From NCBI GenBank assembly GCA_033964015.1, contig CM066919.1:4430101-4494100 (forward strand): DNA of 64,000 nt, written 5' to 3'. A program made the position numbers and the translations under genes. This document shows positions 3,011-37,615 of this stretch, one piece after another (positions within the stretch are counted from its first letter, which is position 1; each line of letters begins with the position of its first letter). A model generated the notes under the pieces. The model did no database searches, was not told the origin of the DNA, and saw nothing but the letters and a program-made list of their open reading frames with translations. The DNA is from Scolanthus callimorphus. Lineage: Eukaryota; Cnidaria; Anthozoa; Actiniaria; Edwardsiidae.

Positions 3011-3310
3011 GGTCAGAGGCAAATTACCGTTTCGCAAATTACCGTTTCGCAAATTCCGTTTTGCAAAATCCCGTTTCGCAAATTCCCGTTTCTCAAATTT
3101 CCGTTTCGCAAATTCCCGTTTCGCAAATTCCCGTTTCGCAAAATCCCGTTTCGCAAATTCCCGTTTCGCAAATTACTGTTTCGCAAAATCCCGTTTCGCA
3201 AAATCCCGTTTCGCAAATTACCGTTTCGCAAAATCCCGTTTCGCAAATTACCGTTTCGCAAAATCCCGTTTCGCCAATTAGCGTTTCGCAAAATCCCGTT
3301 TCGCAAATTA
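3011..3310. repeat. 15-bp satellite array (CCGTTTCGCAAATTC unit), left part
   Basis: About 20 tandem copies of a 15-bp unit, CCGTTTCGCAAAWTM with small variants. Because 15 is a multiple of three and the unit lacks stops in several frames, long open frames run through it on both strands (for example 2953-3507 plus and 3013-3486 minus). These are artefacts of the repeat, not genes. Confidence 0.95.
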
Positions 3311-5446
3311 CATATCAAGATAAATGTGTCGTTTTTGTCAATGCTTACCCGTGCATGACGCGGGATACCTGTGTAGCTATTTCCGAGCTCATGGGGACCA
3401 AAACAAAGATGGCGGCCTACTCGGACAGCGTTGCTCTCCAAAATCTGCAAGTTTTGACGAACTTTTTGGCAATTCTTGGGTTTCAATCACGTGACTTTTG
3501 CGCGTAATTTTGCTTCCGGTCTGAATCAACTGGAGGTCAAGATGAAGAAGTTTTCTGAAGTTCACGAGCAAAACTTCAAATTTAGTAGCTACATTTCTAG
3601 AAAATCACAACTATCAATGAACCTGATTCGTATTTAAATTAAATCCTAGTGTAAATACCAATTTGTAGCGATTGGAAAGTCGGGGTTTGCTTTTTTAGAC
3701 AGTTCAACTGTGGTAAATGAGTAAAGCTTTACAAACTGGCTGATATTTTAGGCAGCTTTTATTTCTTCAAATGCTTGATGTTTTCACTCATTTGGCTCAA
3801 AGAAAAATTGCAATGTAAAACAGATATGTAATTAGGGTTGAGAAACATTTATATGCTCCATCTGTTCTTTGTCTGGACGAAAGATGGAAAGACCTGAGAA
3901 ACAGAAGTTTTGGAAGACGACAAGTTAAGTACTTGATTGCTGTTTTTTTTGTCAAATTGAACTCAGACAATCGACCCGGCTCTGTTGCATACAGTTTTCC
4001 CCATACTGCAAAACAATTTTCCACATCAACAAGATTCAATTCTCAATAAGCTATTACATGTAGATGACAAATTTCTATAGTTTCTAAAGTATGTTTTAAC
4101 AAAACGCCTACATTTTGACATCTTTCAAAGTTGTGTTTCAGCCAGCTCTCAACGCAGCGAGAAAACTCACTTTGAAATGAAAAAACTTGACCAAATTTTA
4201 GTCAATGAAAACGAATTGTATACACACGATTGGGAAAAAGAATCGAAAAGTCCATGTCGACCTAGAATAAATAAGTAAATCCCTGAGTAAATCCCGGAGA
4301 TTTTGCTGGGCCTTCGGACTCCTTGTAAATGTTTGACAAACTTTCATTTTTGCCTACCTGCTCGGTGTGTTTGAAGCGAACTTCATGTGATTTATCCTTT
4401 TATTAAATGAGAAACCAATTCATCCATAGTCCACGGGCACTCAACGGAGCTGTTCCTCAAAAAAGCTGTTCCTCACCCCCTTTCGCTGCTGGCTGGCAAA
4501 AAATAATCGCGGCCTCTTGCTGGCTGGCAAAAATTCATCGCCTCCGGTTCCTGGCAAAAATTTATGCATATCGCTTTTGCTGGGAAACACAAGTTGCTCA
4601 TGGATGTTGAAAAATGAAATTTTAAGTGACAGTACTTAAAAATGCACTTAGTTAGTGGTCGTTTTTAAGGATGGCCATATATTTTTCGGGCTTCCTGTGG
4701 TAATGTTACTCTCCTGGCTGGGAAAATTTTCAGTTAAATTGTCCTGCTGGCTGAGAAATTTTTTAACACGCAGCTGCTGGCTGGGAAAAAATGAGACGCT
4801 ATCCTGGCAAAAAGGAACAGCTAAATTTTTGCCAGCAACTTTTAAAACATGTATTTATATGCTCTACGTGCGTAAAATGTCCAAATACGTAATTTAAACA
4901 CATTTTAACCAGGGGGCTCGTTGTGTGCCCGTGATAGTCCTGGTGGTTTTGTGTAAATCCTTTATGATTCCCTAATCCATCCGTAGGTACCAAACTCATT
5001 TAAACTTAATTTCAAATACATATCTTCATGAATCACTTTCACTTGGCGACAACAAGTTTTCGAGGCCACGGCGCTTTTCGGCTGCTTTTCTGGAGTCGTT
5101 TGGACCATTTCGATTGTTTTCAGAGTTTGTATTGCTTGCTGTCTGTTTTGGGCAATCTTAAGACATCTGTTTATCTGTTTACCAAACTTTTAGAATCAGA
5201 AACAATCCGAGGAGATAATATTTTCACAGTTTTCCATCTCGAAAAGCACTGCAGGGAGGACGTTTGACCTCCAGCTGAATTTTTAATGAGGCTCTAAAAG
5301 GCGGATGTGACGTCATATGAAACCCAAGAATTTAGGGTACGAAATAAGCTAGGAAAACTTCTGGAATTCCAAATATGGTAAGTAGAAACTTCCATATAAG
5401 GTAATTTTAGAAAACGACACATTTGAACGGGAACTATCTTGATATG
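3311..5446. mobile_element. 2.1-kb inverted-repeat element inserted in the 15-bp satellite
   Basis: The left end reads CATATCAAGAT (3311) and the right end ATCTTGATATG (to 5446). Diverged inverted matches continue inward: 3321-3336 with 5411-5424, the ATTCTTGGGTTTC block near 3471-3483 with GAAACCCAAGAAT near 5320-5332, and CTGGAGGTCAA near 3530-3540 with TTGACCTCCAG near 5264-5275. The ends abut satellite units exactly. No transposase ORF is seen inside, so it is non-autonomous; the class is unknown. Confidence 0.7.
4480..4840 (+). repeat. Irregular CTGGCTGGSAAAA repeats
   Basis: Within the inverted-repeat element, a loose motif TGCTGGCTGGSAAAAA recurs about seven to nine times between 4480 and 4830 at uneven spacing. 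It looks like a decayed minisatellite. The short open frames here (4407-4610, 4655-4897) simply translate it. Confidence 0.55.
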
Positions 5447-7665: not shown

Positions 7666-7732
7666 TTGGTCGAGGGTCGATGGTGAGACGTCGAGGGTAA
7701 AATGTCGAGGGTCGAGGGTAAAATGTCGAGGG
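7666..7732. repeat. GTCGAGGGTAAAAT minisatellite, left arm
   Basis: Two to three copies of a GTCGAGGGTAAAAT / GTCGAGG unit at the inner end of the left arm of the foldback element. The same unit appears inverted and expanded at 8778-8878. Confidence 0.8.
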
Positions 7733-8190
7733 TCCATTTTTTTCTTTTTCTCAGGGTCTATTTCTTTTTTAAATGCAAATTCGCGGTTTTCCCCGCTTTA
7801 TTCGCTCACATGCCCGCATGTTGGTGAAAGCGTTCTTGCAGATGCTTCTTCAGACTTGCCGCTACAAGTTTCTTATCGCAGACATTTGTCAATCAAACTT
7901 TTGCTTCGCTAATAAGACTGCACGTGAAGGGAAGCAAAATCTCCTGTTTACATAACCGTGGAAATCTCTAAAGCTAAACAGCAAAATTCGAAGCAAACTT
8001 GCCGAGTCTGAGTATTTTGGGCAAGAAAACATTTTAATGTTTTGCTTTTATCAATCTTCGGGAAAACCAAGATTTCCGCGGCATTTCCACAACCTATTCA
8101 GCCTATTTCTAGCGCTTTACTTGACACTAGAGTGCTTCGTGAAAGATCGCAAATGATATTCGACCTAACTTCATTTCGCTTCGTTTTATT

Positions 8191-17310: not shown

Positions 17311-20045
17311 TTATTATTCAAAGAAAATACAATGACTGCAAAAAATACACAAAGCTATTAAAAACAAGATGCCCAAAACGTGTCCCTAAACTACATATTT
17401 AAAGAGAAGATGGACACAACTCTTACCTATTGAAAGTGGATGTCCTGTAAAGCATGAATGTTCTCAGATTTCAGCTCCGTTCAAGAAATGCCAACCAATA
17501 CCCACTGATCATTTCCAGTACAAATCATACCGTGGTCAGCCGTGGTCTCCATATGTAACCAGCATCTCTAGAAGATATTCGCATTCAAATATCGCCTCCT
17601 TTTATCACAGGTCGCCCAAGCTCTTGTTTCATATTTTAATAAATTTGAATGAATTTAGGCTGTTTTAGAGCACTCTGCATAGCTTGCATTTTGGCTGTTG
17701 CAGTCGAAATTTGTAAAATAATGAAACTAAAAGAATTGTTCAATCATGTTGTACTTACTTGTTTATTAGCCCTTTGTGATCTCCTCTGGGAAGTCTTAAG
17801 CCATTTGGATCACTTTTTCGAGAGATATCATTCACAAACCTCCCCCGGGAAACAAGAGCTTGGGCGACCTGTGCTTTTATATCGTTTGCCGTTAATTTAG
17901 ATATCCATCAGCCGGGCCCAAACAAAATGCAAAATCGATGAAACTACGATGAAACTCCTGAACAAGTCACCGTTGGCGTTTTAAATCAAATGGCGAAGCC
18001 TAGAATACTTCTGAAATCCCCCAAAGAGAAGCTTCGTTATTAACGTGATCTTGATAATTTTTGAAAGAGAAAAATTCAACGAAAAACAGCATAAAAGTCC
18101 TAACAGTTGCGTAGTCAAGCTTCCCCGCCGTCAACATCAGCCGCCATATTGGATTTTTGCATTTTAATGAGATGCGAGTCTTTGATTGACAGCTCACCAG
18201 CTCGGAGCGATCATAGTGACTCGGGTCCAGGCCCTGCTGCGTACCCCCCCCCCCCCCCCCCCCTGACCCCAGCCTTCTTGCAGATTATTTCCCCCAGTTC
18301 CCACGTACAAGTCAAAGGGACTTCCCTTGCAATTTTCCGTCCAATTTGCTACCACCTAGGGGTAAAAGTATCTGTTGACCACACCCAACTTGCTATTCCT
18401 TGGGGTTAAAATCAATTTTCTCGACGAGCATCCCATCTATTTTTATTGAGGGTTCTTCCCCCCCTCCCCCGAGGTTTCAGCCAAAGCCGCCGATATTGGA
18501 AGAGCCCTATGAGATGGATTAATGTATGAGACTGCGGTAACCAAACAAGAAACCGCTGTACAGTAAATTCTTTTTGTCGTTTTATCTGTTTTATGTCTTT
18601 TTCACATGTTTACGTACGCTGATTTATCCTGACAATTATTTTAAAACGACGTTTTTTATCGTTTTACAAGGAAAAGGGAAATAATATAGAATCCCATTCC
18701 CAGTTTATTGGACATTAATTCCCAGTCCCAGTGGTCAAATCCCAGTCCCAGTGACCCCAATCCCATTTTCCCATATCAAGAAATTCCCTTAAAAATTGTC
18801 GACTTTCTTCAACTTCCTTATAAGGAAGTATCTGCATACCATATTTGGAATCCCAGTTACTTTTTCACTATTTTTATTGACGTAGAATACTTCAAACTCA
18901 ACCAGAACTCAAATACACTCGAGAAAATATGTTATGTGCATTTTCCGCTGTGTTTTTCACGGTCAAGAACCTGGAAACAAGGTAGACAAGACACCACAGG
19001 AAGCCCGCTCTATCTCTAGAAAGACGACAATGCTTTCTTGATATGCAGCCTAAAATAAGGCCATCCCAGCTCCCATTTTACCGCTTCTGGACCCTGTTAA
19101 TAATATCAACCTATAATGAAACTGCTACTTTAATGACAGACATGTTCTAAATGGCATTTGACCACCTTCCTTACTTCTGAAGGTGAAATCATGGTTAGAC
19201 TTTTTTGCATACTAGAAATTACAAACCCGGAGGGTTTTTTGAGAAACCGAACCTCGAATGTTCTCTGAAAATGTACAAATTTAACTTAAATGTAAGCTTT
19301 CTCGTTAATTGGCGATGATAGATCTGAAATAGAGAATGTCCTGATTCATGTTTATGACATGTTTTAAACACTCATCCATTATTCAATAGGTTCTCGATAA
19401 TCGGATGTCTTAATATTCACAAGTTCTACACTACCACCTACATCCTCAGCTCAGAACAGAGTACAGGGGCGTCAACTCCTGGTCTTGCTGGGAGTCTCAA
19501 GATTTTTTCGCTCGACCTCCCGGGAAAAATTAAAGAGCACTGCCATACATTTACAACTGTATTTCTCCCAGGAGAATTGCAAGAATTTTCACCTTTTGAA
19601 GGCGGTCACCATTCCTGAGGTTGACGTCCCGAGTTACTAAAACCAAACACTAACTCACTAACTGGTTCAGACTGTTCCGTCACGCGAAGGATCCTTTTAT
19701 AACTCATAATACACTCCACAAATTGAGTGACTCCAGGAAAAAAGCGTCTACCTGCACCGGATGTCGTTGATCATCTCGTTTACAAATTGAGCGACTATTC
19801 CGCAGACATATTCTGACATAAATACTCGACACCAGCAATGACAGCAATCTGAAATTCAAATATCCCACTGCCTAGCCTAGCTCTGACAAGTCGAAATGTT
19901 GTTGCTCTGCGATTTGACAGAACGTCCATAAAACAAATAAACTTTGTCTACTAAGTTGATCACCCCGCAGTGCAAATTCATAGTACGTGAGCTAAAATCG
20001 TTTTTGCATCTCGATTGATCACGGATCTCGATTGATCACGGACCA
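17311..20045. other. Long gene-poor stretch
   Basis: No gene can be supported over about 2.7 kb. It holds a C homopolymer at about 18243-18264, a copy of the 16110-16215 block at 18340-18450, a diverged relative of the 20564-21050 duplication at about 18800-19050, and a dispersed repeat at 19480-19620 whose second copy is at 38885-39000. Minor open frames (17649-17900, 18107-18409, 18708-19019) show no recognisable protein. Confidence 0.5.
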
Positions 20046-21099: not shown

Positions 21100-22005
21100 C
21101 TCCCCCATGTAATTTATATTTTCTGAAAACCTGCCAGGCTCTTGTCCGAGTGATGCAAGTGTCTCTTTCATCCTTCTTTAATAGCGGAAATGCTTTTTTC
21201 TTACTTCTGTCAAAGCTAAGGAACCGCAGTCATTGTTTATCGACTCGATTTTTTACGTGAGAGGATTTGGGGTAATTGACCGATCCCTATTTGACGATAG
21301 CTCACTCATAGCAAACAATAGGAAGTTTTCCCTACGGAATTCAAAATGTCCGAGCAACAAACTTGAATATCAAAGATTTTTCAATAATTATTCAGCTTTT
21401 CGAGATAAAAATATAAAATCCAAATTTCATGCAACAACTTCTAACACCTCCCTGCAATCGGTGTCTTTTCCGCGCTCTATGCCAAATATAAATTTGGTTT
21501 GTTCGACGTAGCAACAGTAACTAGGGGTATAACAATGAATTCGGGATCGGTGAATTCAGGGTAAAATCGCAACGATCCGCCCTCTATAAGTACATTGATT
21601 AACGTCATCCCACCTCTCCTGTCCCCATATAACTAGACTTAGATAAAAAGGGGGGTCGCATTTTTCTTTCGTTGCGAATTCTGATAAACGCATTTCATCA
21701 AGCCTCAGAGAAAGGGTAGATGAAGCCTCAGAGAAAGGGTAGATGAACATGTTTTGTGTACGGATAGTAAATTAGTGAATTTCTATGCTTGTAACGTCGA
21801 ACTCACGCTTTCCTATGGGGTCTTATTCATTCAAACATATAGTGACTGCCCGCCAGTAGGCCTATCATCGCAGGGGATTTTTGGGAGCGTTTTCTTTTCC
21901 TCGTGAAGATACACTGCTTGCTCTTGTTAACGGCGCGAAGGTAGTGTCTTCATTGGTCAAATTTTTATTAAGTAAAAATGTAAATGATAGAGAAGCTGCC
22001 ACGGT
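21100..22005 (+). repeat. Dispersed repeat, second copy of 13510-14440
   Basis: Shares CTCTTGTCCGAGTGATGCA, CTGTCAAAGCTAAGGAACCG, a CATTTCATCAAGCCTCAGAGAAAGGGTAGATGAA-type block (here itself duplicated at 21690-21745) and a GAATTTCTATGCTTGTAA block with 13510-14440, in the same order. A third fragment is at 20393-20470. The family is not identified. Confidence 0.75.
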
Positions 22006-28550: not shown

Positions 28551-28682
28551 GTTAGAGAATGGACGCGAGTGTTCTATGGGATATAGACCACTAATGAACA
28601 AAAATCTGCCAGCGTTAGCGCGAGCAGATTTTTGTTCATTAGTGGTCTATTTACCATAGGACACGAGCGTCCATTCTCTAAC
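28551..28682. mobile_element. 132-bp palindromic hairpin element
   Basis: GTTAGAGAATGGACGCGAGTG at the left pairs with the right end to 28682; the inner stem is CCACTAATGAACAAAAATCTG. The tip is CAGCGTTAGCGCGAG. No coding content. Confidence 0.85.
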
Positions 28683-28815
28683 TTTTTTAGAACATGATCA
28701 ATGCCACGAACTGTCGCGTGAAATTCTTTTGTTCTTTTTGACGTATCCTTGGAAACCTCAACTAGGAGATTTCGGTCTGAGAAAAGCGGTTACACTAAAT
28801 AGTTATCAGAATTCG

Positions 28816-28848
28816 TAAATCCGTAAAGTTTGGATCGAACACCGGAAA
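28816..28848 (+). repeat. 33-bp direct repeat, left flank of the DIRS-like element
   Basis: Begins TAAATCCGTAAAGTTTGG and ends ACACCGGAAA; identical to 35118-35150. It lies outside the element as defined by the internal complementary region. Confidence 0.85.
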
Positions 28849-29012
28849 ATTTATTTCGTAAACTTACCCTAAAATCTAAATTGAATATGCTAATTTGCCA
28901 TCAAATGATATGCACTAGGACAAAGGAATAAACATAATATTCCCGGATGTACCTACATATTACCCAGACTCCTACTGGATCACGCCACTTCGGTTTTTGT
29001 GCAACTCGCGAG
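28849..29012. repeat. DIRS left inverted terminal repeat
   Basis: Outer end TTATTTCGTAAACTTACCC, then a long stretch matching the complement of the right repeat through CACGCCACTTCG. The extreme 20 bp differ from the right end, as is usual in DIRS elements. Confidence 0.88.
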
Positions 29013-29528
29013 CGGATCGTGTGTGTATAGAGAGAGCCTTCAGACAAGTTTGTCTTGCCCTATACTTGCGAAAACCGACGTTTGCCGTCAGAGCTTCTCT
29101 GGAGGATATATTATGTTTCTCCCGGCTTCAGAAGAGGCGTGCTTTAGGCGTGCTTTAAGTGGCTTTAATGTCCGCCATCTTGGATTCTTTCCTCGCTGTG
29201 TTTGTATCTGTTTCAGGCGTGCTTTAGCTTTCGCTTCGCCTGTATTCTGCAGAGTTATCGGTCCTCCGTTAACTCTCCTACCGTTGCCTTTTGCGGCTAT
29301 AGAATTTCACGCTTTTTTCTAGCCGTAAAGACCTTCGTATTTCTTGTCATTTCGGTGTAGAGTCACGTGGCCCTCTGGCGTAACCCCTCGTGTTCCTCGG
29401 CCTTTTTTGCTGCACCTAGACTTTGGCAGTGACTGTATGCAGCTATTTTGTTGTGCTGTGCAACTATTAGTACTATTGTAGGTTATTTTAGCCTTTGTTT
29501 TTTCTTCGTTTTTCCTGTAGAACTGGTC

Positions 29529-31588
29529 ATGGAAAACGAGGAAAATGTAGCTGTAACTCCGGTGCTGGAACAGCCTCCCTTGACCTTGGAGGATATGAGA
29601 CAGCACATGATAGCAAGTCAGGCAGCAGTGGCTGCCTTACGGGCAGAAGTTGAAAAAATGAGAAGCTCTAGAAGCGAGTGTTCTTCACGGAGACGCAGCC
29701 ATTCACCACAATCACATTCGTCCTCACCCAAGCGACCAAGGACAGATGATGTATTGTCATTATTCACAGAGAGAGATTCTTCGTTGGAACAGAGCACACA
29801 TGCTGCCTCAACACAGCATGCTCAAGGCTCCGGGCCTGATCCGGAGGAGTACCTCTCTCATGCGCAAAGAGAGAGGCAAGCTCCAGGGTTCTCAGATAAT
29901 GTTGCATTTGTCTCTGAGTACCTTAAATTGGGTCACAAGAAGAAGGCTCAACAGCCCTTCCGCAGTCTGGGTGAGCAACTGTTGACTCCAGAGGAGGGAA
30001 ACTCAGGCGAATTAAGGCTTGGCTTTCGAATAAAATAGCATAAAATTATATTTTGCAATAACACTTTTGCTATTTGACATATCATGTTCATCTGTTTATG
30101 GGAGGTACATATCAAGACCCGTGACATTTTGATGGGGATAAAATTTCATTTCAAGGGTCACGTGACCTTAAGGCAGCTAAAATGAATTTTCGAAAATGGG
30201 GAGTACTTAGCGTTAAAATAGCTAAGTGAAATATATATTATTTAAGAGTAGGTTAGGGTAGCTATATGAAATAGACTTTGCAGGTTGACTACCGGTACTT
30301 GGGAAGGAGATATTTAGGAAAATATAATATGCAAATTAGGTCACGTGACCTGTTTTGCAGGATATCTCACTTTCTGAAAGGATTTTCCAAACTTCAAAAA
30401 CTATTCCTTAAAGTACTCTAGGAAAGGAGCAAAATTAATGTTAATTTGTGGTATCCTATAATTTCCTTGTACGCCCCATTTTTAATTGAAAAATTTGGCT
30501 CAAACTCCAGTGCTAGCTTGTCACGTGACTACTCTTCCTACCGGAACAGGTATCAATTTTTTGGGGTTCAAGGTTTTCTATTAATACATACCAAAACAAT
30601 TGATATTCCATCAGTTTGTAAGATGAAATGTCTTAAAATTCAATTTATCGAGCAAATTGGTGTCTAGCCAAGCCTTAATCCGCCTGAGAATGAGAAGCAG
30701 ATTTATTCTCTTCCTCCTTCGGATTCTGTTCGTCACTGGATTAAGGAGACGGACAGCAAGATTCGTGGGTCAGAATCCAGGGACACCCTGAAGCAACTGA
30801 AGGAGTCCTTACAGGCTCACCACTTGGCTATGTCGGGTACAGAAACATTTTCTAACATGCGTAAGGTGTTTCCAGCTCGAAGTTACCTGATTCATGATGG
30901 TGTTGTGGAACAAACACCTCAGAAGTTGGATCAGGATTTCCAGTTAATTGGATCTCCTGAATCTAATATTACAGCTAAAGTAGCTAATGTTAAAGCTGTA
31001 GAGTCATTAGCTCGTTCCAGCTTGGATGTCATTTCCTATGTGGAACATTTTGAAGTAGCATCCACAAGTCTTCTCCAGGAGTATATCACAAGCATACATA
31101 CTGGGGATGAGGACTTACCTCCTAAGCTTCAGATGCTTCTCAATCTTAAGAAATCCCAGGCTAGGGCTATTTCTCACTTGGCCAATATAAGTTCTAAGCT
31201 TTTAGGCAACCTGACGCTAATCAGAAGGGACTCTTTCTTAGATAAGTCCAAGGTAGCAAGAGAGGTTCAACTCAGAAACTATCTGCGTAGTACTGCTACA
31301 ACTCAGCCTTCATTGTTTGCAGGCCAAATAACTGCTGTTGCTAAGGAGGCATCAGAGCGACAGAAGCGGGCTAGACTACCCCTCGCGGCTCGTGCAGGGA
31401 ACTGGCCCACCCACACTTCTACCACTAACTATCAGACGCCTGCTAGAGCTCCACAACAGGCTGCTCGTGGCTCTGAGAGGGCTTCAACATTGCCGTCTGC
31501 CACCCCAATGCGGCGTCAAGGCCAACGTGGGAGGACCAGACGCTCGGCACCTAACAATAGTGATAAGAAGACACCAAAAAACGCATGA
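29529..31588 (+). pseudogene. DIRS gag-like ORF, split by a TTAA insertion
   Basis: The first part starts at the Met at 29529 (MENEENVAVTPVLEQ), has a Ser/Arg-rich stretch (RRRSHSPQSHSSSPKR, likely nuclear-targeting) and runs to about 30011. A 659-bp insertion follows. The frame resumes at 30680 with PPENEKQIYSLPPSDSVRHW and ends at 31588 with a basic tail rich in Arg and Thr. Removing the insertion and one TTAA leaves the two halves one base out of frame, consistent with a lost A in the run before CTCAGGCG. Gag-like proteins of this class are poorly conserved; the call rests on position before RT and on composition. Confidence 0.75.
30016..30674. mobile_element. 659-bp non-autonomous element with TTAA target duplication
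   Basis: Ends GGCTTGGCT and AGCCAAGCC, each bordered by TTAA (30012-30015 and 30675-30678). A TTAA duplication is the mark of piggyBac-type transposons. The interior is AT-rich with no credible ORF. It interrupts the gag frame of the DIRS-like element, so it is the younger of the two. Confidence 0.85.
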
Positions 31589-31621
31589 CTGGACGGGCTG
31601 CAGGCCCCAACCTGTCCACTC

Positions 31622-33478
31622 ATGTCACATCTTTTAGACCTACCGCTACCCTCTATACCGGTCGGAGGTCGGCTGTCTCATTTCCTTGTCTCCTGGAAAG
31701 AGGTGTGCAAGGATTCTTATGTCATTCAGCTTCTCCAGCAGGGATACTGTCTCCTGTTTCAGTCCCTCCCAGTATTGACAACATGTCCAGTGCCGTTTCC
31801 TGTGCCAGAGGTCAGCAACAGAAAACAGCACTTAGAACAGGAAATATTGTCCATGCTGGAGAAGAATGCCATAGAGGAGGTGCAGAACACCAAATATATG
31901 GGTTCTACAGTCCTCTGTTTGTCATTCGCAAAAAGAATGGCAAACTCCGTCTGATCATAGACTTGCGAGGTTTGAACAGACATTTAACGGTAGAAAATTT
32001 CACATGGAGACCCACGCAATCTACATTGTGCAATTCAGGAAGGGGATTGGGCTGTGTCGGTGGATCTATCGGATGCTTACCTTCACATTCCAATGCATCC
32101 TGCATCTCGGAAATACCTTCGTTTCTGCTACAAAGGGAAGGTATTCCAGTTCCGAGTTCTCCCTTTCGGTCTTTCCCCCAGTCCACGGGTCTTTACCAGG
32201 GTGGTAGATGCAATGATGGTGCATCTCCGATCACTGGGCTTCAACATTCACAACTACCTGGACGACTGGTTGCTTCGACACCAGTCGCCACAGGAATTAG
32301 GATCTCAGATTCAGTATCTTCTACCTTTGATAATTCATCTAGGATGGCTTCCCAGCCAGGAGAAGTCCGAGTTGGTACCATCCCAGAACTTTCTCTTTCT
32401 GGGGACCCATTACCAGACAGATCGGGGACTAATGTTTCCACCTGTTTTAAGAGTGGCACAAGTCGCGGCACATGTGCGTCGTGTCCGACTAGCACAGTAT
32501 GTTGTTGCCAGGGACTTTCTGTCTCTGTTGGGGAGACTTGTCTCACTAGCAGATCTAGTACCATATGGCCGTCTTCGATACAGGCCGCTCCAGCTGTATC
32601 TTTTAGCCCACTGGAGGCCCAAATTGGGATGTCTGTCAGACAGAATTCCACTCGACCACTCGTTCCTAGACCCATTTCTCTTGTGGTGGACCAAGAGGTC
32701 CAATGTTTTACAAGGGAAACCCCTGCATTTACCAACATCAACATCTCAAGTAGCCCTGTACACAGATGCATCACAGGAGGGATGGGGGGGTCACTGCGAG
32801 CAGCTGACAGTATCAGAGACATGGACAGTAGTAGAGTCTCGCAGACATATCAACGAGTTAGAGCTCCTAGCTATACAGAAAGCTCTTCATAAATTTGTAG
32901 AACTGCTGAGGGGGAAAACAGTGACAGTCCACTGCGACAATTCCTCAGCAGTAGCATATATTCGAAATCAAGGTGGAACCCATTCGTTGCACATGTTTCG
33001 AATAACTTGGGAGATCCTCCTCTGGTGTCAACAGGAGGGGATCACGTTATTGGCTTGTCACATCCCAGGCAGGCTGAACGTTCGGGCAGACCGCCTAGTC
33101 GAAGAGGGCAGGTGCTCAAGACCGAGTGGTCAATACTCCCATCAGTGGGCATACGCGTTCCCTCCAACTCCCTTAGTTCCGCAAATCCTGTACAAGCTAC
33201 AGCATTCACTTCACTGCAGAATGCTTCTCATTGCTCCACTGCAGTTTTATCAGCCGTGGTTACCACTTCTTCTAAGTCTTCTAGTGGACCACCCCAGGGA
33301 GATACCAGCATTGCCCAGGTTACTCAAACAACCTCAGTCAGCGGTATTTCACCAACACCCAGAATGCCTGCATCTGCACGCTTGGAGCATATCCAGCGTG
33401 GCTTGCGAGAGAGAAATTTTCAGAAGCGGTTGCAGCCCGTCTCTCCCGCACAATTCGGTAGTCCGAAGGAATTTATGA
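31622..33478 (+). pseudogene. DIRS reverse transcriptase-RNase H
   Basis: The RT begins in the frame of 31622, passes to another frame near 31905 (FYSPLFVIRKKNGKLRLIID), and returns near 32035. From 32054 the frame is open to 33478. RT blocks: VDLSDAYLHIPMH, FRVLPFGLSPSPRVF and the catalytic NYLDDWL near residues 67-73 of that frame. RNase H follows with LYTDAS (Asp 238), NELELLA (Glu 270), HCDNSSAVAYI (Asp 295) and a late RADRL (Asp 347), so all four acidic residues remain. The two frameshifts mean no intact protein. In the intact family this enzyme copies the RNA into a circular DNA. Confidence 0.9.
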
Positions 33479-33491
33479 CTGCAAATGGAAG

Positions 33492-34470
33492 GTGTTTGCG
33501 GATTGGTGTGATTCAAAACAGATTGATCCACTCCAGTCCTCTATTCAACAATTAGCAGACTTCTTTGAATTTTTGTTCTCAGTTAAGAAGTTAGCGCCAT
33601 CGACAATTAAGGGTTACCGCTCTGCTATAGGGTCAGTGCTTAAGTCATACGGTGGCAAGAAACCAGGTACAGATGCAGTATTGTCATCGTTGATGCGAGC
33701 GTTTGAAATTGAACGCCCTCGCTCTCCTAAGATTATTCCACAGTGGAATGTCGCTTTAGTTCTACAAGCCCTTTTGAAGGAGCCTTTTGAACACTTAGAT
33801 TCATGTGACATGAAGTATCTGTCTTGGAAGACAGCTCTTCTGGTAGCCTTGGCATCAGCTAGAAGGGTAAGCTGCTTACATGCCTTCTCTCTTGAGCCGG
33901 ATTCACAGAACCCACAACTTCCTGGGTCTCTGAGATTTGGCAGGCATAAGGTAGATGTGACAATTTTTACTAACCCTGCCTTTAAAGCTAAGAATCAAAT
34001 GGGGGATGCCAATCCTCCAGTAGTGATTCAGGCCTTACGGAACTTTCTGGCTAGTCAGGAGGAACCTGACAACATGCTCTGCCCTGTCAGGGCATTGCAG
34101 TATTATATTAAGCGTACTCAGCCCAAGAGGGGAAACTGCTTTAGACATCCCCTACAAACTGGGTGATGGATCAAACAAGCTAACCCCCAATTCTGTCTCA
34201 AGGTGGATTAGGTCAGCCATAAGGCAGGCATATTCTACCTTGGGTAATAACGAATACTACAGAGGTCTAACTGGTATATCGGCACACGAGGTTTGAGCCA
34301 TTGCCTCATTTTGGGCATTATTCAACGATGCGCCCTTAGAGAACATTCTGCGAGCGGCGTATTGGAACAATGAATCTACGTTTACCAGTTTTTACCTCCG
34401 GGACATGTCTGGATTTTCAGAACAGATCCACAGACTTGGACCCCTCTCCGTAGCCCAGTCTACAGTGTAG
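33492..34470 (+). pseudogene. DIRS tyrosine recombinase
   Basis: The core-binding part is FADWCDSKQIDPLQSSIQQL to about residue 75. The catalytic part has ALASARRVSCLHA, with the first catalytic Arg. The frame is lost near 34140 and resumes one frame over with IPYKLGDGSNKLTP. The HxxR box then reads H-E-V followed by TGA (34294-34296) where an Arg codon (CGA) is expected; the nucleophile Tyr is kept in SFYLRD (34393-34395) and the frame ends at 34470. In the intact element this enzyme inserts the circular DNA by recombination. Both defects inactivate it. Confidence 0.88.
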
Positions 34471-34768
34471 AGACTAGTTCTCGGAGTTTTGTGCATATCA
34501 TTTCCACAATTAGTTTTGTTTAGACATGTAAATATTGTACATAGAAAGAGGACAGGTGTAGACACCTAGTCTTAGTATCTAACTCCTGGCATTAATCTGC
34601 AATTTACCTGGAAGTGCAGTCAGTACCAACAGTATGTATGTGGTCATTGGTGACCGTTCAGTGGATGCTGTTCAAGTTGCTCATGATAAACCAGAACACA
34701 AGTTGGTTGGTCAAGTGACTACTCTATACAGCAGGATTGTACCCGCCACCTATCATGATATTCAGGTA

Positions 34769-34862
34769 TTCAATTTAGATTTTAGGGTAAGTTTACGAAA
34801 TAAATATATCATTTTTTTTGAAAATTGATATTTATGAGTAATATTTACCTAAAATCTAAATG
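34769..34862. repeat. DIRS internal complementary region
   Basis: Left half (TTTAGGGTAAGTTTACGAAA) complements the element's left outer end; right half (TTGATATTTATGAGTAATA) complements its right outer end. The two halves meet as the ends would in a circle. In DIRS models this region templates completion of the circular DNA. Confidence 0.9.
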
Positions 34863-34924
34863 ATTTTGCCCTCCGTACTCCTTGGGAGAAGTACTCCACC
34901 TCCCCGCTTTACATCCTTAATCAT

Positions 34925-35117
34925 TGCTGCTTCGCTCGTTGCACAAACGAAGTGGCGTGATCCAGTAGGAGTCTGGGTAATATGTAGGTACATCCGGGAA
35001 TATTATGTTTATTCCTTTGTCCTAGTGCATATCATTTGATGGCAAATTAGCATATTCAATTTAGATTTTAGGTAAGTATTACTCATAAATATCAATTTTC
35101 AAAAGAAAATGATATTT
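34925..35117. repeat. DIRS right inverted terminal repeat
   Basis: The complement of 28855-29012, from CGAAGTGGCGTGATCCAG to ATTTAGATTTTAGG, followed by a right-specific outer end that finishes AAAAGAAAATGATAT near 35115. Confidence 0.88.
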
Positions 35118-35150
35118 TAAATCCGTAAAGTTTGGATCGAACACCGGAAA
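35118..35150 (+). repeat. 33-bp direct repeat, right flank of the DIRS-like element
   Basis: Identical to 28816-28848. See the finding on a possible target-site duplication. Confidence 0.85.
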
Positions 35151-35400
35151 TTGAACTGAAGTTTAGCAGAACTCAGGAAGTCGCATTACAGTATGGATGT
35201 ATGTAATTTTCAAGTAATTTTCAAGGTATTGTCTTAACATATTCCCTTCGGAGTTCCTCACGACTTGTGGTTGGCTGTTCTGGCTATAAAATCTATTCAG
35301 ATTTTATTGTTTACCCTCTCTCTCGCATTTCATGTTTTGACCGGAACTGATTTGGTGTGCTTTTCCTTTAGTTCTCTACAGGATTGTCCCTTGGTCGTAA

Positions 35401-36092
35401 ATGTCGGACACGGAAGGAAAGACTCAGCCACAACCAGTACGGCACGAAGGAGCGTCGTTTTCTGGCGGGACGACGCAGAGCGCTTCAGTTTCGCAGGAAC
35501 CTCAGCTAGTCGACCAAGTCTTCTCCCTCTTTAAAGGTTTCCTGGACCAGCAGTTAGACGCTAAGGGGAAGGAACTTGAAACCAAGTCGGAGATACAAAA
35601 GCAGGTGGAAAAGCTCAAATATAAGGGTAATAGAAAGCAGTACGAGGTAAACGCCGAAATAAGTGCACTATTATTGAACATTGACGAACAGCGCGATAAC
35701 CCTGATAAAGTTCATTCGCTTACGAAGCAAGCTCAGATTCATCAGATTATCATTAAGAAAAGGCAAAAACTGATTAGGATTGCCGATAGGTCAAAAGACG
35801 GTTGGAGTATCGCAGAGGAGTACGAGTCCGACGACCTTGCATCAGACTCAGAGGACGAAAAGCGCCAAAAAGGCTAAGAATGTTGTTGAGAAAAGGAAGG
35901 CCGCCGAAAGATCCAAGCGGCCGGACAAGAGGCCAAAAGTTAACAATAGCAATGTTGGTAATCAGCTTTTTCGTGGTAAGACCAATTGGCGTTTTTATAA
36001 CTGTTATACTTTGTGTCTCTTGTCATTTTGGATGCCTGAGAATCCAACCATAAGTTGTTGTCTCTCGTTTTCTTTACATTTAAGAGTAAAAT
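35401..36092 (+). pseudogene. Gag-like ORF of a tyrosine-recombinase-type retroelement (probable)
   Basis: A frame of 158 codons starts at 35401 (MSDTEGKTQPQPVRHEG). It has a Gln/Lys-rich helical region (VDQVFSLFKGFLDQQLD, then KLKYKGNRKQYEVNAEI) and an end with KLIRIADRSKDGW, EEYESDDLASDSEDEK. It stops at 35877, but the basic tail KAKNVVEKRKAAERSKRPDK continues in another frame, so one base has been lost in the A-run near 35868. A good GTAAGA donor sits at 35974 after NQLFRG. I believe this is the N-terminal gag of a DIRS or related element common in corals, from memory of composition rather than a search. It is separate from the DIRS-like element that ends at 35117. A host gene's first exon is the alternative. 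Confidence 0.5.
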
Positions 36093-36357: not shown

Positions 36358-37615
36358 TTGCTAAAATTCTCGTTGGAAGAATTTCTGGAGAATCATTTCG
36401 ATCAAAAGTCAACAAAATTTTCACCAACAGGAAATACGAGACTAATTGTGTATTTATTTCGGGATCCAAGAGCTGTAATTTCTTCTATGGATGAAAGTGC
36501 TTGGATTGGGTACACTAATCAAAACGGAACATTTATTTCACATTCATCACATAGCGAGAAATTTTTGGATTACATTAAAATGACTTGTCGTCAAATGGAA
36601 GAACATCTGGACTTTCTCTATAATCCGCCTCAATATTTCAAAAACAAAGTCCTTCTTTTGCGGTATGAAGATTTAATTATCGATCCTGTAAACATAATAA
36701 TAATAATAATGTTGTTTATTGATCCTTTCATAGCTTATAGCTAAATTACAGGATTTCCATGAATATTATATATAGAATTCGAACAATAAATAGATAAATA
36801 TACATAGATAATAGGGAGTAGGTAAATATAGATAAATAGAGGATATTACACGGTGGCGCGAAGATATGAGTTTTATTTTCGAGTGGCAAGAACAATATTT
36901 TACGAATGAACGCAGCGAATGAGTAAAATATCGTTTTTGACACGAGAAAATAAAACTCATATCTTCAAACCACCGTGTAATTTTCTTTTTATTATATAGA
37001 CAAACCAGAAAAAATATTCCAAATTGATTTCCAAACACTTTTGTTTTGATCGATATCCTCACTAGTGAGGATATGGAAAATATCTCACTGAGGACCCGGA
37101 TGTAGCTTCGTATGAGATCTACGACTGGCGTATTTCCCAGTAAAACACTCGTGTCTATATAATAAATATAATTATCAAATGTGATCACTAGCTGGGCAGC
37201 TCAGGTAGCTTGCATACTTGTTGGTAACATTACGAGGCATCTTTTCGAGTTTATTAATTTGTCATTACCAGATGGAATCGAAAAATGGTTAAATAACAAA
37301 ATGAACGTAAAGGAAGTAGATGGTCAGGATAGTATATACGGGATTAGGAAAAACGCCACATTGTCACTGCAAAAATGGAGGTTTACAGCCACCAGAGGTC
37401 TCGTGGCTGCTGTAGAGAGACATTGCGGGAACGTCATGAAAACACTGGGATATATAAAGACTAAAGGATCGTATGAGCTGCAAACACGGCTGAGTCACCC
37501 TTTACTGCGAACTCTGAAGCAGCCGTTCCCACTCATCATGAAAACAAAATTCCCTGACCAAACACAATTGCCGTTCTTTATTAGTAAATGGGTTTTCAAT
37601 GTTAAATCTGATTAA
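36358..37615 (+). CDS. Sulfotransferase, two C-terminal exons
   Basis: The product would transfer sulfate from PAPS to a carbohydrate or other acceptor, probably in the Golgi. Exon 1 (36358-36687) begins after GTAGCAG and carries RLIVYLFRDPRAVISSMD, the 3'-phosphate-binding RDPRAVISS block, and LLLRYEDLIIDP at its end. Exon 2 (37205-37615) begins after GCAGCTCAG in the same phase 0 and carries LFEFINLSLPDGIEKWL and ATLSLQKWRFTATRGLV, typical of the C-terminal half. The 5'-PSB loop (TxPRSGTT-like) is not in the window segment I can join, so upstream exons are missing or unseen. The intron (36688-37204) holds an ATA microsatellite and a hairpin element. A carbohydrate sulfotransferase 1-like assignment is likely but not proven. 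Confidence 0.75.
36838..37168. mobile_element. Hairpin element in the sulfotransferase intron (copy 3 of the TTACACGGTGG family)
   Basis: AGAGGATATTACACGGTGG and CCACCGTGTAATTTTC form a hairpin (36840-36985) whose tip reads ACGAATGAACGCAGCGAATGAG. The following block to 37168 (GAGGATATGGAAAATA, GTAAAACACTCGTGTCTATA) matches 10620-10700 in the arm of the element at 10156-12267. Confidence 0.85.

What the first reader, a model, noticed from the sequence alone, without database searches (positions are those of the whole stretch)
28816..35150. DIRS-like element bordered by identical 33-bp direct repeats
DIRS elements integrate by tyrosine recombinase and are generally reported without target-site duplications. 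Here the 33 bp directly outside each end (28816-28848 and 35118-35150) are identical, and the internal complementary region does not contain them, so they are not part of the element. A 33-bp duplication would imply staggered breaks or a different integration route, or recombination with a copy already present.
Basis: partly seen in the sequence, partly recalled or inferred. Interest (0 to 1): 0.75.

Follow-up and report, generated by a model that had tools for sequence, protein, structure and literature searches.

The report
DIRS retrotransposon flanked by 33-bp repeats
A decayed animal jumping gene of the DIRS type is flanked on both sides by the same 33 letters, most simply because it landed at the seam of a short sequence that was already doubled, though a real duplication made on insertion is not excluded.

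Summary
Identical 33-bp direct repeats lie at 28816-28848 and 35118-35150, around a DIRS1-like element with inverted terminal repeats, an internal complementary region (ICR), RT/RNase H and a broken tyrosine recombinase. By comparison with the ICR the element starts at 28849 (ATT) and ends GATAT, most likely plus a terminal triplet TTT (35116-35118). On that reading the outermost T of the right repeat is element sequence, and 32 bp repeat flush on both sides.

If the element is removed leaving its right-hand triplet, the site is exactly two head-to-tail copies of a 35-bp unit, 35 of 35 identical. Ordinary insertion without target duplication into an existing 35-bp tandem duplication therefore explains everything; the cost is that insertion had to hit the copy boundary. 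This is my leading reading (0.55). A genuine 32-33-bp target duplication, against the published no-TSD rule for DIRS, stays open (0.2).

The decisive test, other copies or an empty allele in the host genome, could not be run: the genome search did not answer in 22 tries. I rate the finding probably ordinary but unresolved.

The parts
28816..28848 (+). left copy of the 33-bp direct repeat (28817-28848 is the 32 bp shared strictly outside the element)
28849..35118 (+). DIRS1-like element, ATT...TTT, 6270 bp, decayed (35115 if the terminal triplet is not counted)
   Evidence: ends fixed by comparing both junctions with the ICR; terminal triplets as described in PMC3266345 section 10
28849..28995 (+). 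left terminus / left ITR
   Evidence: 28849-28887 is 39/39 complementary to 34767-34805; 28868-28995 is 127/128 complementary to 34945-35072
29529..31588 (+). gag-like ORF1 region, interrupted by a nested insertion at about 30002-30688
   Evidence: ORFs, inverted repeat I7; no Pfam match above cut-off, so gag is assigned by position
31585..33478 (+). reverse transcriptase / RNase H region, in more than one frame
   Evidence: ORFs; RVT_1 E=4.7e-15 and RT_RNaseH E=1.5e-9; 877 proteins at E<=0.001
33492..34470 (+). tyrosine recombinase region, broken by a frame change near 34163 and an in-frame stop at 34294-34296
   Evidence: 76 relatives of the N-terminal piece; of these 76, 21 also match the piece before the stop and 40 the piece after it
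34767..34861 (-). internal complementary region; its reverse complement reads right end - ATT - left end (circle junction)
   Evidence: inverted repeats I3 and I4
34945..35118 (+). right ITR plus right extension, ending GATAT-TTT
35118..35150 (+). right copy of the 33-bp direct repeat (35118 shared with the element's terminal triplet)

Best explanation
A DIRS1-like retrotransposon inserted in the usual way: a circular DNA copy joined by its tyrosine recombinase at a 3-bp core, with no target-site duplication. The target already held two head-to-tail copies of a 35-bp unit, TAAATCC...CCGGAAATT, and the core (TTT) straddled the boundary between them, so one copy ended up on each side. Shown: repeat identity, element ends by comparison with the ICR, and the exact two-copy 35-bp structure of the inferred empty site. 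Inferred: the circle, recombination at the triplet, that the target core was TTT, and that the duplication came first.
For: Both junctions fall exactly at ICR-defined ends, as recombinase insertion predicts. The end triplet TTT beside a start ATT is not unusual: in Table 3 of PMC3266345 I count 10 of 28 elements whose start and end triplets differ, and its text says 23 of 28 begin and end NTT. With TTT as the target core, the empty site is a perfect duplication, 35/35 at period 35; with ATT it is 34/35. Short exact tandem duplications occur elsewhere in this window: units of 17 bp at 20008, 21 bp at 7690, 23 bp at 21700. DIRS and other tyrosine-recombinase elements are described as making no TSD (passages).
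Against: No empty allele or second copy was seen. The insertion had to hit the copy boundary: in a simulation, 9.6% of core positions inside a 35-bp two-copy duplication gave flush repeats (at least 31 bp, up to 1 nt slack each side), multiplied by the small share of the genome that is duplicated: 0.68% of the window in 5 segments, about half of it one long array. The exact two-copy duplications in the window have shorter units (17-23 bp); outside the array at 3101-3312 none with a unit of 24-80 bp was found. The 33-bp sequence occurs nowhere else in the window. In Table 3 of PMC3266345 I count only 15 of 28 elements with NTT at both ends, fewer than the 23 of its text, so the triplet rule that places TTT inside the element is loose.
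Confidence: 0.55

Rival explanations
1. A true 32-33-bp target-site duplication: the circle or its linear form was joined across staggered breaks about 32 nt apart and the gaps were filled, by a non-canonical route for a DIRS element.
For: The repeats abut both element ends (0 nt on the left, 0 to 2 nt on the right), which a TSD predicts and a random hit in a tandem repeat mostly does not. The 33 bp show 0 differences, while the element's own paired repeats show few (1/128, 0/39, and 2 substitutions plus 1 indel in about 57), so equal age fits.
Against: The passages seen report no TSD for this group. It needs the T before the unit and the TT after it to match the element's triplet by chance (about 1 in 64, my estimate, if the triplet is TTT) to give the perfect 35-bp period. 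Precise recombinase-type ends argue against a generic break-repair capture.
Confidence: 0.2
2. The 33 bp belongs to the element family or to a repeated target that the family prefers, for example the leader of the gag-like element whose ORF starts at 35401.
For: The right copy lies about 250 bp upstream of an ORF (35401-35877) with 355 database relatives, so the target may be another retroelement. DIRS-1 is reported to target its own copies preferentially (PMC5633606 passage).
Against: The ICR does not encode the 33 bp, and the best match to termini or ICR is 18/33. Only two copies are in the window and none in viral contigs (a collection that may leave out the host's own records). Other copies in the genome were not examined.
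Confidence: 0.1
3. Assembly artefact: the two haplotypes or a gap were joined so that 33 bp of flank appear twice.
For: No read-level evidence is available; the element could be heterozygous.
Against: There are no Ns in the window, and both junctions fall on ICR-defined element ends, which a misjoin would hit only by chance.
Confidence: 0.08
4. Unequal exchange between two alleles that carried the element on opposite sides of the same 33 bp, leaving the segment on both sides.
For: It produces a flush duplication without any TSD. An ATT that could serve as core lies just before the left copy (28811-28813) and at the end of the right copy (35150-35152).
Against: It needs two independent insertions about 33 bp apart. 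The left-hand ATT is followed by CGT before the unit, and the right junction lacks CG there; the left junction has one A more than the right copy's end, so extra changes are needed.
Confidence: 0.07

Closest known systems
DIRS1-like retrotransposons (order DIRS), e.g. AcaDIRS, SkoDIRS, NveDIRS6b
   Same: ITRs, ICR spanning the circle junction, right extension, RT/RNase H and tyrosine recombinase, ATT start
   Different: Identical 32-33-bp direct repeats flank this copy, whereas the family is described as leaving no TSD. The coding regions are broken, and a stretch after RNase H present in relatives P0005 and P0033 is missing.
Ngaro and PAT-like tyrosine-recombinase retrotransposons
   Same: RT/RH plus tyrosine recombinase
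   Different: These have split direct repeats (A1...B1-A2-B2; passages). Here the terminal repeats are inverted and the 33-bp direct repeat has no internal copy.
Short tandem duplications (minisatellite-like), as seen elsewhere in the window
   Same: The inferred empty site is an exact two-copy head-to-tail repeat
   Different: Here the two copies are split by the element; the unsplit form was not observed, and the other exact two-copy units in the window are shorter (17-23 bp).

Membership tests
DIRS1-like retrotransposon | inverted terminal repeats | tested here: met
   127/128 complementary over 28868-28995 and 34945-35072
DIRS1-like retrotransposon | ICR complementary to the two outer ends, carrying the circle junction | tested here: met
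   34767-34861 matches both ends
DIRS1-like retrotransposon | terminal triplets, usually NTT, matching the circle junction | tested here: met
   ATT at 28849 equals the circle-junction triplet; TTT at 35116 differs from it by one base. Text of PMC3266345: 23 of 28 begin and end NTT; by my count of its Table 3, 15 of 28 have NTT at both ends
DIRS1-like retrotransposon | RT/RNase H | tested here: met
   Pfam RVT_1 and RT_RNaseH above cut-off
DIRS1-like retrotransposon | tyrosine recombinase | tested here: met
   76 relatives, a few named core-binding domain protein or integrase and one carrying PF00589; Pfam hits of the window's own pieces only below cut-off; gene broken in this copy
DIRS1-like retrotransposon | methyltransferase-like domain after RNase H | tested here: inconclusive
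   no Pfam match; part of the stretch found in relatives P0005 and P0033 is missing here
DIRS1-like retrotransposon | no target-site duplication | tested here: inconclusive
   flush 32-33-bp repeats are present but are also explained by a pre-existing tandem duplication
Ngaro / PAT-like element | split direct repeats A1...B1-A2-B2 | tested here: not met
   the flanking 33-mer has no internal copy; the terminal repeats are inverted
Insertion with 33-bp TSD | empty allele with the segment once | not tested
   The genome search gave no answer in 22 tries (first, last)

The most novel reading that the evidence does not exclude
A DIRS element that integrated with a real 32-33-bp target-site duplication, i.e. 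through widely staggered breaks rather than simple 3-bp recombinase exchange: a second integration route for tyrosine-recombinase retrotransposons.
Probability: 0.2. Interest if true: 0.7.

Novelty: new member of a known kind. Interest (0 to 1): 0.3.

Why it matters
The way DIRS elements replicate and enter chromosomes is a proposed model. A passage of PMC5633606 calls the replication mechanism experimentally not fully proven, with circular cDNA shown in one Dictyostelium mutant strain and the recombination step only indirectly supported. A reproducible long duplication would contradict the no-TSD model. A single case explained by a tandem target supports the model and warns that flush flank repeats alone do not prove a TSD.

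Tried and rejected
Considered and set aside: (1) the 33 bp as part of the element: best match to termini or ICR 18/33, and no further copy in the window. (2) Split direct repeats as in Ngaro or PAT: no internal copy. (3) A longer homology between the two flanks: a BLAST of 549 bp of left flank and 1283 bp of right flank against the window (E up to 0.01) found only the 33 bp in common. (4) The right flank resembling the element's left arm as a recombinase site: 12 of 22 positions, too weak to use.

Led nowhere: the 33-mer and a 22-mer of the left terminus gave 0 exact matches in viral contigs. Three protein scans of viral contigs gave pattern matches but no confirmed relative. The genome-contig scan gave 3 DIRS-bearing contigs, L001-L003, all titled as one Breoghania MAG. 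I ran only a repeat search on them and took nothing from it for the question; their termini and any flanks were not compared with this element. Rfam and tRNA scans of the window were empty. The PDB search of the RT piece gave reverse transcriptases of retroviruses, retrotransposons and the like among the 60 of 197 shown. The six literature searches listed no title that I recognised as reporting a long TSD for a DIRS element. Of 11 papers opened I saw passages only, plus one whole section of PMC3266345, so this does not prove that none exists.

Full report
Observation. The 33-bp direct repeats at 28816-28848 and 35118-35150 are real and identical. Allowing 3 mismatches, the window holds these two and no others, against at most 0 in 100 shuffles. 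The next best ungapped match in the window is 20/33.

The element. Between them lies a DIRS1-like retrotransposon. The left and right ITRs are 127/128 complementary (28868-28995 and 34945-35072). The ICR at 34767-34861 is complementary to the first 39 bp of the left end without a difference, and to the right end with two substitutions and a 1-nt indel in about 57 bp. Read in reverse complement, the ICR spells right end - GATAT - ATT - TATTTCG - left end, i.e. the circle junction. RT and RNase H match Pfam above cut-off and 877 database proteins, of which 120 were listed. The N-terminal recombinase piece matches 76 proteins; of these, 21 also match the piece before the stop and 40 the piece after it. 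Pfam gives only sub-threshold N-terminal integrase hits for the window's own pieces. The copy looks dead: the RT region is spread over frames, the recombinase changes frame near 34163 and has a stop at 34294-34296, the ORF1 region holds a nested insertion at about 30002-30688 (I7), and a stretch after RNase H present in relatives P0005 and P0033 is missing.

Exact ends. A survey of 28 DIRS1-like elements says that 23 begin and end with NTT, most often ATT, with a matching circle junction (PMC3266345, section 10 read). Its Table 3 is looser than its text: by my count 22 begin NTT, 15 have NTT at both ends, and in 10 the start and end triplets differ. Here the start is ATT (28849-28851), the triplet of the circle junction, and after GATAT the right end reads TTT (35116-35118), one base away from it. 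The element is then 28849-35118, 6270 bp, and the repeat strictly outside it is 32 bp (AAATCC...CCGGAAA), touching the element on both sides. If the element is taken to end at GATAT, two T separate it from the right 33-mer.

What the empty site would look like. Joining the flanks with one triplet gives a head-to-tail repeat with a period of 35 bp. With the right-hand triplet TTT as the target core, exactly two full copies result, 35/35 identical; with ATT, 34/35. So a normal insertion without target duplication, at a core on the boundary of two tandem copies, leaves just what is seen. Exact two-copy tandem duplications with units of 17, 21 and 23 bp are in the window. Against this reading, none with a unit of 24-80 bp was found there outside the long array at 3101-3312, and only 0.68% of the window, in 5 segments, lies in near-perfect tandem repeats of period 20-60.

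Weighing. For the tandem target: it needs no new mechanism, it gives the perfect period, and the passages seen describe no TSD for this group. Against it: the insertion must fall at the copy boundary, which 9.6% of positions would satisfy in my simulation, on top of the rarity of such targets. For a true TSD: flushness follows at once. Against it: no precedent in the passages seen, and the T and TT matches that complete the 35-bp period would be chance (about 1 in 64, my estimate, if the triplet is TTT). Divergence does not separate the two: the repeats differ at 0 of 33 and the element's internal pairs at about 1%. A finding picked out of a large scan is also expected to include rare coincidences. 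I put the tandem target at 0.55, a true TSD at 0.2, family or target sequence at 0.1, misassembly at 0.08 and unequal exchange at 0.07. These odds are judgement, not computed.

What could not be done. The decisive comparison, other copies of the family and empty alleles in the same genome, depends on the genome search, which did not answer in 22 tries (first, last). Among the 120 listed relatives of the ORF at 35401 the animal names are a sea anemone and two corals; among the 76 relatives of the recombinase they are molluscs. An invertebrate host is my inference.

Noticed in passing
window 30002-30688: Nested insertion inside the ORF1 region with 23-nt inverted ends (96% complementary, I7), probably a small non-autonomous DNA transposon.
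   Followed up: partly
window 35401-35877: ORF of a widespread family, gag-like by my recall (355 proteins, 120 listed; animal names Actinostola, Pocillopora and Stylophora), beginning about 250 bp after the right repeat; the DIRS element may sit in the leader of another retroelement.
   Followed up: partly
window 28551-28682: 132-bp palindrome (64-nt arms, 89% complementary, 4-nt loop, I2), MITE-like, in the left flank.
   Followed up: no
window 7690-7734, 20008-20042, 21700-21747: Exact two-copy tandem duplications with units of 21, 17 and 23 bp.
   Followed up: partly
window 36358-36744: Sulfotransferase-domain fragment (Pfam PF00685, E=5.6e-6), possibly a host gene exon.
   Followed up: no
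L001:1-6201, L002:1-6353, L003:1-5920: Contigs filed under a Breoghania MAG encode relatives of the DIRS RT (36% identical); L001 and L002 carry long perfect inverted repeats. Probably eukaryotic contamination (inference); the same may hold for RT relatives named under Sedimenticola and Thiodiazotropha MAGs.
   Followed up: partly
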